Part shown: positions 18,917-21,019 of the stretch, piece after piece
Position numbering within the stretch: position 1 is the stretch's first letter
Layout of the letters: each line of letters begins with the position of its first letter
NCBI GenBank assembly: GCA_020621405.1
Contig: JAHRYN010000009.1
Span: forward strand, 1-64,000
DNA from: Betaproteobacteria bacterium
Lineage (GTDB): Bacteria; Pseudomonadota; Gammaproteobacteria; Burkholderiales; Rhodocyclaceae
Direction of reading: 5' to 3'
DNA length: 64,000 nt
Notes under the pieces: generated by a model
Database searches by the model: none
What the model saw: only the letters and a program-made list of their open reading frames with translations
What the model was told of the DNA's origin: nothing
Program-made: the position numbers and the translations under genes

Positions 18917-18937
18917 CCGGCGCTGCCGCTCAGGCAG
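18909..18937. terminator. Convergent hairpin spanning two stop codons
   Basis: CTGCCTGA (18909-18916) and TCAGGCAG (18930-18937) are perfect inverted repeats with a 13-nt loop. Each arm contains the stop codon of one of the two converging genes. No T-runs are present, so any terminator would be of the bidirectional, weak kind. Confidence 0.45.
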
Positions 18938-20219
18938 TCTGCCGGCGTGCGCGGGCGGCGCAGCCCAGCACCGCCAGACCGCCCAGCATCATGGCCCAGG
19001 TACCGGGTTCGGGAATCGGCGCCGCCGGCAGCGGCGCTTCGACCGAAGCCGCCGCAACGGCACTGCCCAGAGCGCCGCGGCCGAAGCCCGTCACGGACGG
19101 TGAGGCCAGTCCTTCGGACTGGCCGCTGGGGAAATCCAGGGCATAAGACAAGGGTGCCGTTGCCAGCCCGTCTTCGTCGAGCGACCACAGGGTCTGCTTG
19201 ATCGACTTGAACACCATCGATTCGCGCACCGTGCCGTCCGCCAGTTCCAGGGACGTCAGATAGGGCCTTTCCATGACCATCTGCATCAACGTCACCGGAC
19301 CGGAGCGGCCATTGACGACGTATTCGAAGGTTGCTGTCGGCAATGCCTTCCCGCCTGCGATTGCGGCCAGCGTGGAGAGGACGCTGCGGTCCATCGACTG
19401 CGTCCACGAGAACGCGTCCGGCAGCGGCTTGCCGACGCTCGCGCCGCCGCTCTTGGACCACGACGATTCGGCGCTCAGGCCCCACGTGGCATCGCTGATC
19501 TGGATCCAGTTCTCGTAGCCGCGAACCGTACTTTCGCCGGCGATGGCCTCGGTCTCCGATGCGAAGCGGAGGAAGAGGGCCGAGTCCGAGATCCTCGAGT
19601 TCGTTCCCGGCATTTTGGGGGCCGTATAGACGGGTGCGGTCACTTTGCCTGTCTGGATATCCCAGCTCGTCGTGAGTGTGCTGTCCGGCTTGCCGTCCGA
19701 GCTGCCAACCTGGTAGGCGAATTCGATGGACTTGTAGACGATCGACGCATCGACCTGCGGTGCTTCGCCCGCAGTGAAGGCGTACGAAAGATCCGTCAGA
19801 TAGGCGCCTTTCGTCGTGATCTTCATGAAGGAAGTGGGGGCCGCGCCGATCGCGGACGAGGTCTGCTTCGTGAAGTCGAACTTCGCTGTTTCCACCGCCT
19901 TGCCCGTGCTTATCTGGGTCGCCAGCGAGGGAACGCTGCGATCCAGCGATTGCGTCCATGAGAAAACGCCGGCCACCGGCTTGCCAATGGAGGCCTGGCT
20001 ACCCTTCAGCCAGGACGTCGCGGCAGTCACGGTGTAATGAGTGGAGCTCACGTCAATCCAGTCCTTGTGACCCGCATCGGTACTCGAGCCCTTGATTTCC
20101 GGGTTCGTCAGTTCCAGAAAGACGTCGCTGGCGGCAATCGCCGGGGTGACCACGGCGCAACTCATGAGGGCCGCGACCAGCGCGACCGGTTTCATCGATC
20201 TTCTGTGCAGGGTTTTCAT
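18930..20219 (-). CDS. Exported protein with two Hcp-like domains and PEP-CTERM tail
   Basis: 429 residues. A signal peptide (1-30, ending TPAIAA) precedes two related domains at about 31-190 and 211-363. Each carries features of the Hcp (type VI secretion tube) family: GSSTDAGHKDWIDVSSTHY and GESTVRGYENWIQISDATW, then FSWTQSLDRSVPSL and FSWTQSMDRSVLST, and FMKITTKGAYLTDL and LMQMVMERPYLTSL. The tail has PEPGTWAMMLGGLAVLG followed by basic residues (403-429), a PEP-CTERM exosortase signal. Bona fide Hcp lacks a signal peptide, so this is likely a surface protein using the same barrel. No type VI genes are nearby. Confidence 0.75.
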   Translation of the reverse strand: MKTLHRRSMKPVALVAALMSCAVVTPAIAASDVFLELTNPEIKGSSTDAGHKDWIDVSSTHYTVTAATSWLKGSQASIGKPVAGVFSWTQSLDRSVPSLATQISTGKAVETAKFDFTKQTSSAIGAAPTSFMKITTKGAYLTDLSYAFTAGEAPQVDASIVYKSIEFAYQVGSSDGKPDSTLTTSWDIQTGKVTAPVYTAPKMPGTNSRISDSALFLRFASETEAIAGESTVRGYENWIQISDATWGLSAESSWSKSGGASVGKPLPDAFSWTQSMDRSVLSTLAAIAGGKALPTATFEYVVNGRSGPVTLMQMVMERPYLTSLELADGTVRESMVFKSIKQTLWSLDEDGLATAPLSYALDFPSGQSEGLASPSVTGFGRGALGSAVAAASVEAPLPAAPIPEPGTWAMMLGGLAVLGCAARARRQTA

Positions 20220-20389
20220 CACTGTATTGACCTCGGTTTGTTTGTTGTATGGGACTCTTTTCGGGCGGCGACCTTGTTCCGGCACCTGCTCACGAAGCCG
20301 GATAAAAGACCTGTCCGGCGGAGAATCGAGTATCCGCACCCTGGTGCGAGGCGTCAATCGTGATGCTGCGCGGCGACTGCAGCCGCCAT

Positions 20390-21019
20390 TCAGCCCTTGT
20401 CGGCGGATACGGCCTTGCGCTTTTTCGGGGCGGGTTTGGCCCGCTGCAGCCGGGTCAGACGGCGGCGGATCTCGTCGGAGTCCATCCAGATGTCGCTGCC
20501 CTTGAGGATGCGGCCGACTTCTGCTTCCGACAGGAAGGGCGTGCAGATGCGCGTCATCACCTTGTCGAACCAGTTGCCGACGGCGATCACCTCGGCCTGC
20601 TGTTCATTGCCGCGGCCGGCGAAGCTGCCCGAATAGATGTGGAACATCAGCTGGCAGTTGTCGTGGATCACCAGTTCGTCGCCGCTGAGGAAGATCAGCG
20701 CCGCCATCGAGTAGGCGCGCGCTTCGAGCACGGTCACGACATGCGCGTCCGACGCCAGCACGTTGTTGATGATCTGCAGCCCGGTGTCGAATTCGCCGCC
20801 CGGCGAATTCAGGTGCAGGTAGATCAGGTCGGTTTCGCTGGCAGTGCGCAGCGTGTAGAACAGCTCGGTGTAGTACTGCGGCTCCTGGATGTCGCCGCAC
20901 AGATAGTAGGAAATCTGGTGGATCGGCAGCTGCCGTTCGTAGCGGATCAGTCCGCGGAACGGCACCGGCTGCGTGTTCTCGTCGTCGTCGGCATCCTGCC
21001 CCATCGCTCTGCGCTGCAT
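20390..21019 (-). CDS. ClpP-like serine protease subunit
   Basis: 209 residues. The core matches the ClpP fold: LNSPGGEFDTG (oxyanion region, 71-80), nucleophile Ser104 in ARAYSMAALIFLSG and His127 in LMFHIYSG. It differs from housekeeping ClpP in its acidic N-terminus (DADDDENT) and lysine-rich tail (KPAPKKRKAV). No Clp ATPase gene is near. GGAGGA fixes the start. It may be a dedicated peptidase for a local substrate or a ClpP-family paralogue of unknown partner. Confidence 0.78.
   Translation of the reverse strand: MQRRAMGQDADDDENTQPVPFRGLIRYERQLPIHQISYYLCGDIQEPQYYTELFYTLRTASETDLIYLHLNSPGGEFDTGLQIINNVLASDAHVVTVLEARAYSMAALIFLSGDELVIHDNCQLMFHIYSGSFAGRGNEQQAEVIAVGNWFDKVMTRICTPFLSEAEVGRILKGSDIWMDSDEIRRRLTRLQRAKPAPKKRKAVSADKG

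What the first reader, a model, noticed from the sequence alone, without database searches (positions are those of the whole stretch)
18930..20219. Hcp-like tandem domains on a secreted, PEP-CTERM-anchored protein
Two related domains, each with the Hcp core pattern (ESTD-like turn, HKDWI/YENWI, DRSV-SxLA), sit between a Sec signal peptide and a PEP-CTERM sorting tail. Hcp tubes are normally cytoplasmic and loaded by type VI secretion. No type VI gene is nearby. The combination suggests the Hcp fold has been reused as a surface or matrix protein.
Basis: partly seen in the sequence, partly recalled or inferred. Interest (0 to 1): 0.7.

Follow-up and report, generated by a model that had tools for sequence, protein, structure and literature searches.

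The report
Exported tandem Hcp-fold PEP-CTERM surface protein
A bacterium that appears to lack a type VI injection machine exports a protein built from two copies of that machine's tube subunit and tagged for sorting to the cell surface, which suggests that this tube fold has a second role in the bacterial coat or slime.

Summary
Window 18930-20219 (-) encodes 429 aa: a Sec-like signal, two Hcp domains (Pfam T6SS_HCP 1.8e-35, two stretches) and a PEP-CTERM tail. AlphaFold and Foldseek give the Hcp fold for both domains. The genome (Methyloversatilis-like) has exosortases A and B, no other Hcp domain and no VipB/TssC sheath gene.

It recurs: 25 distinct Hcp + PEP-CTERM proteins in 19 genomes, 5 of them tandem. 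VipB is absent from 19 of 19 carriers and present in 8 of 8 chosen canonical-Hcp controls. In trees the 30 PEP-CTERM Hcp domains lie on one side of a branch (81 to 95 support); 27 of 30 lack a residue pair typical of T6SS Hcp. Seven of 7 tested miss the TssD cut-off that 4 of 4 canonical Hcps pass.

Best reading: a surface or matrix protein made of a ring-forming module, not a T6SS part. Ring formation, cleavage and location are untested. A published Hcp survey removed PEP-CTERM genes, so the combination was met there but set aside.

The parts
18930..20219 (-). gene for the 429-aa secreted tandem Hcp-fold PEP-CTERM protein
20133..20219 (-). Sec-type signal peptide, residues 1-29
   Evidence: read from sequence; hydropathy script
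19638..20129 (-). Hcp-fold domain 1, residues 31-194
   Evidence: Pfam stretch 34-169; model; Foldseek of the whole protein
19584..19637 (-). linker between the two domains, residues 195-212
   Evidence: model, lower confidence
19107..19583 (-). Hcp-fold domain 2, residues 213-371
   Evidence: Pfam of domain 2 alone 2.4e-14; model and Foldseek of domain 2 alone
19020..19106 (-). Ala/Gly/Pro-rich stalk of low model confidence, residues 372-400
18942..19019 (-). PEP-CTERM sorting tail, residues 401-426 (PEP motif, hydrophobic stretch, basic end)
20231..20234 (-). GAGG, likely ribosome-binding site
   Evidence: by eye; the same CCGAGGTCAAT stretch stands before the start in relative G283
20329..20357 (-). 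possible sigma-70-type promoter: TTGACG at 20352-20357, 17 bases, GATACT at 20329-20334
   Evidence: by eye; both hexamers and the 17-base spacing recur in G283, the spacer letters differ

Best explanation
A secreted structural protein, not a T6SS part. Sec exports it (signal read from sequence). The PEP-CTERM tail holds it in the inner membrane until exosortase A or B (both genes found; which one acts is unknown) cuts the tail and hands the protein to the cell surface or exopolysaccharide (inferred from published work on PEP-CTERM). There the two Hcp-fold domains (supported by profiles and models) serve as building blocks. The assembly I think most likely, by inference only, is side-by-side packing as in Hcp rings, so that three tandem chains make one pseudo-hexameric ring, as phage T5 pb6 does. 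It belongs to a set of such proteins in Burkholderiales genomes in which no T6SS sheath gene was found, so it is not fired by a T6SS of its own cell.
For: Domains and tail. Fold of both domains. Exosortases. No second Hcp domain and no VipB in the genome. 25 proteins in 19 genomes with Hcp domain and PEP-CTERM-like tail, 5 tandem. VipB 0 of 19 carriers against 8 of 8 controls. In the family, 14 of 14 carriers show no Hcp match outside these genes. One branch splits 30 PEP-CTERM domains from 29, 34 or 117 canonical ones. Sec-like start in 19 of 25 tail-bearing proteins and 0 of 118 without a tail. Loop L2,3, which serves ring stacking in B. pseudomallei Hcp1 (passages of PMC4650826), keeps its length. 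Precedents: T5 pb6 (passages) and PepA in flocs (abstract).
Against: No result shows export, cleavage, location or oligomers. Residue changes (W-x-Q; Glu lost) could mean altered or lost subunit contacts. Exosortase is found in 18 of 19 carriers but also in 11 of 11 non-carriers, so it does not discriminate. T6SS absence rests on one gene family, and 5 of the 19 carriers are only 65-89% complete. Three of the 25 proteins look canonical-like. PEP-CTERM scored under Pfam's cut-off in 2, and was not reported in 1, of 16 proteins run. Neighbouring genes give no functional hint.
Confidence: 0.6

Rival explanations
1. Hcp fold kept, rings lost: the domains act as monomeric beta-barrel modules (spacers or binding modules) of an exported matrix or surface protein.
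For: Both domains keep the fold while a basic/Glu pair of canonical Hcps is gone in 27 of 30 PEP-CTERM domains. Single-domain forms are the majority, 20 of 25.
Against: Loop L2,3 keeps its length. In published tubes a doubled tube domain goes with a pseudo-hexameric ring (passages of PMC5717097). Neither bears directly on this protein.
Confidence: 0.3
2. A T6SS tube protein or Hcp-borne T6SS effector that only looks exported.
For: Pfam family T6SS_HCP is clearly matched; some Hcps carry C-terminal extensions (known from PMC8262886, passages).
Against: No VipB in 19 of 19 carriers against 8 of 8 controls; 7 of 7 tested miss the TssD cut-off while 4 of 4 canonical Hcps pass; a Sec-like start, absent from 118 of 118 tail-less Hcps by script.
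Confidence: 0.04
3. Several independent captures of Hcp by the PEP-CTERM route rather than one lineage.
For: Three domains (from G814, G993, G908) keep the canonical K...E pair and ASP/ASG motif and group with the 29 canonical ones in a starred set, 99/94.
Against: The best trees need one change of label; support 81 to 95, so one origin is neither shown nor rejected.
Confidence: 0.35
4. A decaying leftover of a lost T6SS.
For: No T6SS sheath gene in the genome.
Against: The frame is intact, the relative G283 keeps 66% identity and the same architecture, possible promoter and ribosome-binding stretches recur, and a Sec signal and sorting tail would have had to be gained.
Confidence: 0.03

Closest known systems
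Hcp/TssD, T6SS tail-tube protein (PF05638, TIGR03344; solved 1Y12, 4TV4, 4W64)
   Same: Fold and Pfam domain
   Different: Sec-like signal, PEP-CTERM tail, two domains in one chain, no T6SS sheath gene in the genome, under the TssD cut-off
PEP-CTERM proteins sorted by exosortases (PF07589, TIGR02595, NF035944), e.g. PepA of floc-forming bacteria
   Same: Signal peptide, PEP tail, exosortase in the genome
   Different: Has an identifiable structural domain; PEP-CTERM proteins mostly show no homology to others (passage of PMC1569441); not similar to PepA beyond the tail
Phage T5 tail-tube protein pb6
   Same: Two tube domains fused in one chain (passages of PMC5717097)
   Different: A phage tail protein whose trimeric, pseudo-hexameric ring is shown; here the ring is only proposed, and the domains are Hcp-family ones with a sorting tail

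Membership tests
Hcp/TssD (T6SS tube protein) | Hcp fold and PF05638 match | tested here: met
Hcp/TssD (T6SS tube protein) | NCBI TssD model TIGR03344 over its cut-off | tested here: not met
   52.9 against 58.9 bits; 4 of 4 canonical Hcps pass, 6 of 6 further PEP-CTERM Hcps fail
Hcp/TssD (T6SS tube protein) | T6SS sheath gene (VipB/TssC) in the genome | tested here: not met
   0 of 13 in the genus
Hcp/TssD (T6SS tube protein) | No Sec signal; leaves through the T6SS | tested here: not met
   Sec-like start read from sequence and by script
Hcp/TssD (T6SS tube protein) | Hexameric ring | not testable with these tools
   no multimer prediction or coordinates available
PEP-CTERM exosortase substrate | Sec signal peptide | tested here: met
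   by eye and script only
PEP-CTERM exosortase substrate | PEP motif, hydrophobic stretch and basic end at the C-terminus | tested here: met
   PF07589 and NF035944 over cut-off
PEP-CTERM exosortase substrate | Exosortase in the genome | tested here: met
   XrtA and XrtB over cut-off
PEP-CTERM exosortase substrate | Tail cut by exosortase, protein at the surface | not testable with these tools
   needs experiment

The most novel reading that the evidence does not exclude
A lineage of Hcp-fold proteins separate from T6SS Hcp, perhaps parallel to it or older, builds rings or tubes outside the cell as part of the exosortase-dependent matrix; its tandem members are another duplication/fusion of the tube domain and assemble as three-chain pseudo-hexamers.
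Probability: 0.25. Interest if true: 0.85.

Novelty: new variant of a known kind. Interest (0 to 1): 0.57.

Why it matters
Hcp-domain proteins are readily named 'type VI secretion system tube protein'. Here is a recurrent set, in genomes where no sheath gene was found, that reads as Sec-exported and exosortase-sorted. If it assembles, it is an extracellular use of the phage-tail tube fold and a handle on what PEP-CTERM proteins, most of which have no recognisable domain, do in flocs and biofilms. It also suggests a simple annotation rule: Hcp domain with signal peptide and PEP-CTERM tail is not TssD.

Tried and rejected
T6SS component: rejected, see rivals. Sigma-54 promoter as reported for pepA: a simple -24/-12 pattern was found in 0 of 5 upstream regions scanned. 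Conserved operon: of nine genus stretches compared, only G283 shares the neighbours of the tandem gene; a rough gene call around 17 loci gave no recurring partner in the part of the output I saw (it was cut), though G172, G217 and G258 have further PEP-tailed proteins close by. Mobile origin: 4 plasmid records match, all annotated as T6SS tube protein, and the two opened lie in T6SS clusters; one unannotated 4.8 kb phage record; 6 viral contigs match the tail only. Covariation of the positions of Q90 and V156 (domain 1): 141 of 145 domains agree, but the tree needs only 3 changes at the first site and independent pairs cannot reach significance. The KSHV_K8 Pfam match is under its cut-off and taken as chance. 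Alignment A4 held a row in the wrong frame and was replaced by A5.

Literature: searches (nine, open-access library only). One paper held both 'Hcp' and 'PF07589': PMC8262886, whose methods removed PEP-CTERM genes (passage). PMC2907700 and PMC8788690 mention T6SS Hcp and PEP-CTERM apart (passages); of the other papers I saw only the listing. No description of such proteins was found in these searches; most subscription papers are not in the library.

Weak Hcp matches in G106, G174 and G245 were not opened; G106 is of the same genus code as carriers G172 and G217. Hits that did not reach the tail of the model were not all read; two proteins (G814 C71, G993 C91) were noticed only by their long open frames, so 25 is a lower bound.

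Full report
OBSERVATION. The frame 18930-20219 on the minus strand encodes 429 residues. Pfam finds T6SS_HCP in two stretches (whole-protein E 1.8e-35) and PEP-CTERM at 401-426, both over cut-off. NCBIfam puts PEPxxWA-CTERM over its cut-off, while the T6SS-specific TssD model TIGR03344 stays under it, 52.9 against 58.9 bits. Against sequences of solved structures the best matches are Hcp proteins, E 6.7e-11 and weaker. The second domain alone matches T6SS_HCP at 2.4e-14.

FOLD. The model of the whole protein (8-row alignment; mean pLDDT 72, pTM 0.70; ten-residue means 59-94 between 31 and 370, both ends under 50) shows two beta-rich domains, each with one helix. Foldseek returns Hcp chains first, E 1.4e-12; target TM is 0.83-0.88 in the top ten apart from a GspE-Hcp fusion. 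Domain 2 modelled alone is less confident (mean pLDDT 67) but again meets Hcp chains first, target TM 0.75-0.89 in the top ten apart from that fusion. No coordinates were available to me, so the angle between the domains is not assessed.

GENOME. The assembly (3.8 Mb, 12 contigs, completeness 100) holds no Hcp domain besides the two in this gene, no VipB, two exosortases that pass the cut-offs of exosortase A and exosortase B, and 55 listed PEP-CTERM matches of which 50 are over cut-off. The closest named relative, 66% identical over residues 1-419, is a Methyloversatilis MAG, the same contig as G283.

RELATIVES. In the genus 10 of 13 genomes have an Hcp domain. In each of the ten it sits in a protein with a Sec-like start and a PEP-CTERM-like tail: three tandem (own, G283, G118) and seven single-domain (one search read the own locus and that of G206 on the wrong strand, one search has them right). 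In the family 81 of 297 genomes match the Hcp + PEP-CTERM model; the matches running to the tail come from the ten genus genomes and from G217, G172, G281 and G258. In the order 81 of 399 match; besides the own genome, five carry the combination: G879, G814, G993, G908, G759 with 1, 3, 3, 3 and 1 proteins. In the class sample 55 of 369 match, and among listed hits only the own gene covers Hcp domain and tail without a stop; not every hit was opened. In all, 143 distinct Hcp-domain proteins were gathered from the loci; 25 have a PEP-CTERM-like tail, 5 of these tandem (one search's stricter pattern found 22, and three more were added by eye and then by the script). The script scored a Sec-like start in 19 of the 25 and in 0 of the 118 others; the 6 that it missed look Sec-like by eye. 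Pfam was run on 16 of the 25: T6SS_HCP is over cut-off in 16 of 16; PEP-CTERM is over cut-off in 13, under it in 2 (one each of G814 and G908) and not reported in 1 (G759).

NO T6SS SHEATH GENE. VipB is absent from 13 of 13 genus genomes, ten of them carriers, and from the nine carriers outside the genus: 0 of 19 carriers. The same call finds it in 8 of 8 genomes chosen as controls because they hold strong canonical Hcps; the other canonical-Hcp genomes of the family were not tested. Five carriers are 65-89% complete (G217, G172, G258, G993, G759), so absence there is softer. In the family the 14 carriers show no Hcp match outside these genes. Exosortase occurs in 18 of 19 carriers (not in G217, 65% complete) and also in 11 of 11 non-carriers, so it does not discriminate.

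DESCENT. In a careful tree of 30 PEP-CTERM domains and 29 thinned canonical ones one branch splits the two sets (95/81). With all 117 canonical domains the split remains in a quick tree (81), and with five more T6SS-type Hcps it is 93/81. Some PEP-CTERM rows have long branches. Three domains (G814, G993, G908) group with the canonical ones in a starred set (99/94) and keep canonical motifs, so a second capture is possible; a starred set holds 27 PEP-CTERM rows (98/95). The ten domains of the tandem proteins and the four of the neighbouring gene pairs of G814 and G993 form one 14-row set (97/86). First domains as one clade are not rejected (p-AU 0.41), so a single duplication is possible but not shown. 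The root is unknown: neither 'derived from T6SS' nor 'older than T6SS' is shown.

SIGNATURE. In the thinned alignment, canonical Hcps have a basic residue shortly before the helix (K/H/R in 26 of 29) and a Glu in a later strand (27 of 29). PEP-CTERM domains have W two residues before that site (26 of 30), Q at it (26 of 30) and mostly V, A or L at the second site; the Glu is kept in 3 of 30, the same three that keep K. Over 145 of 147 domains with both sites filled, 141 agree that a basic residue goes with Glu, but few independent changes underlie this and the sign test is not significant. A canonical group (Moraxella type) has Ala with Val or Met, an apparent parallel. Whether the two sites touch, within or across subunits, could not be tested. 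In EAEC Hcp1 the helix packs on strands 8 and 9 of the neighbouring subunit (passage of PMC3925092).

MECHANISM. Supported by sequence and models: signal, two Hcp folds, sorting tail, exosortases, no VipB. Inferred: export, cleavage, surface or matrix location. Proposed: ring building. Hcp rings are 80 A wide with a 40 A channel and loop L2,3 serves stacking in B. pseudomallei Hcp1 (passages of PMC4650826); that loop has a median of 17 residues here against 18 in canonical Hcps. Phage T5 pb6 shows that two fused tube domains can make a trimeric, pseudo-hexameric ring (passages of PMC5717097). PEP-CTERM protein PepA takes part in floc formation (abstract of PMC9850573). Most PEP-CTERM genes are single-gene operons (abstract passage of PMC1569441), which fits the lack of a conserved neighbourhood here.

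KNOWN OR NEW. A survey that collected about 267,000 IMG and metagenome genes with an Hcp domain removed those with PEP-CTERM before building its tree (passage of PMC8262886), so the combination was met and set aside. My nine searches found no description of it. I rate it a new variant of a known kind: known fold, known sorting tail, an undescribed union with a consistent no-sheath-gene setting.

Noticed in passing
L253 8929-11165 (Eleftheria terrae plasmid NZ_CP106952.1): A T6SS cluster with four hcp genes in a row, all annotated as tube protein; the first two are 62% alike and line up with the two domains of the window protein (29% identity over 47-359).
   Followed up: partly
canonical Hcps of L061, L181, L182, L189, L195, L199 (alignment): These T6SS-type Hcps have Ala with Val or Met in place of the usual basic residue and Glu, an apparent parallel to the change in PEP-CTERM Hcps.
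   Followed up: partly
L231 7855-9467 and the like place of L232: Two single-domain Hcp-PEP-CTERM genes side by side, the unfused counterpart of the tandem protein.
   Followed up: partly
L237, L238, L240: Hcp-PEP-CTERM genes with other PEP-CTERM-tailed genes close by.
   Followed up: partly
L234 8764-13695: A long open frame (1643 aa) in a rough gene call next to the tandem Hcp-PEP-CTERM gene of G908; transposase-like frames lie on the other side. Families not tested.
   Followed up: no
phage-collection record MT838875.1, 2518-2985: An unannotated 4.8 kb 'Bacteriophage sp.' record encodes an Hcp-like stretch (27% identity to the window protein).
   Followed up: no
window 20390-21019 (-): A ClpP-like protease gene (CLP_protease 2.2e-11) directly upstream in the same direction, kept near the tandem Hcp gene in G283.
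   Followed up: partly
genomes G106, G174, G245: Weak Hcp matches (6e-18 to 9e-16) not picked up by the Hcp + PEP-CTERM model; could be further divergent members.
   Followed up: no
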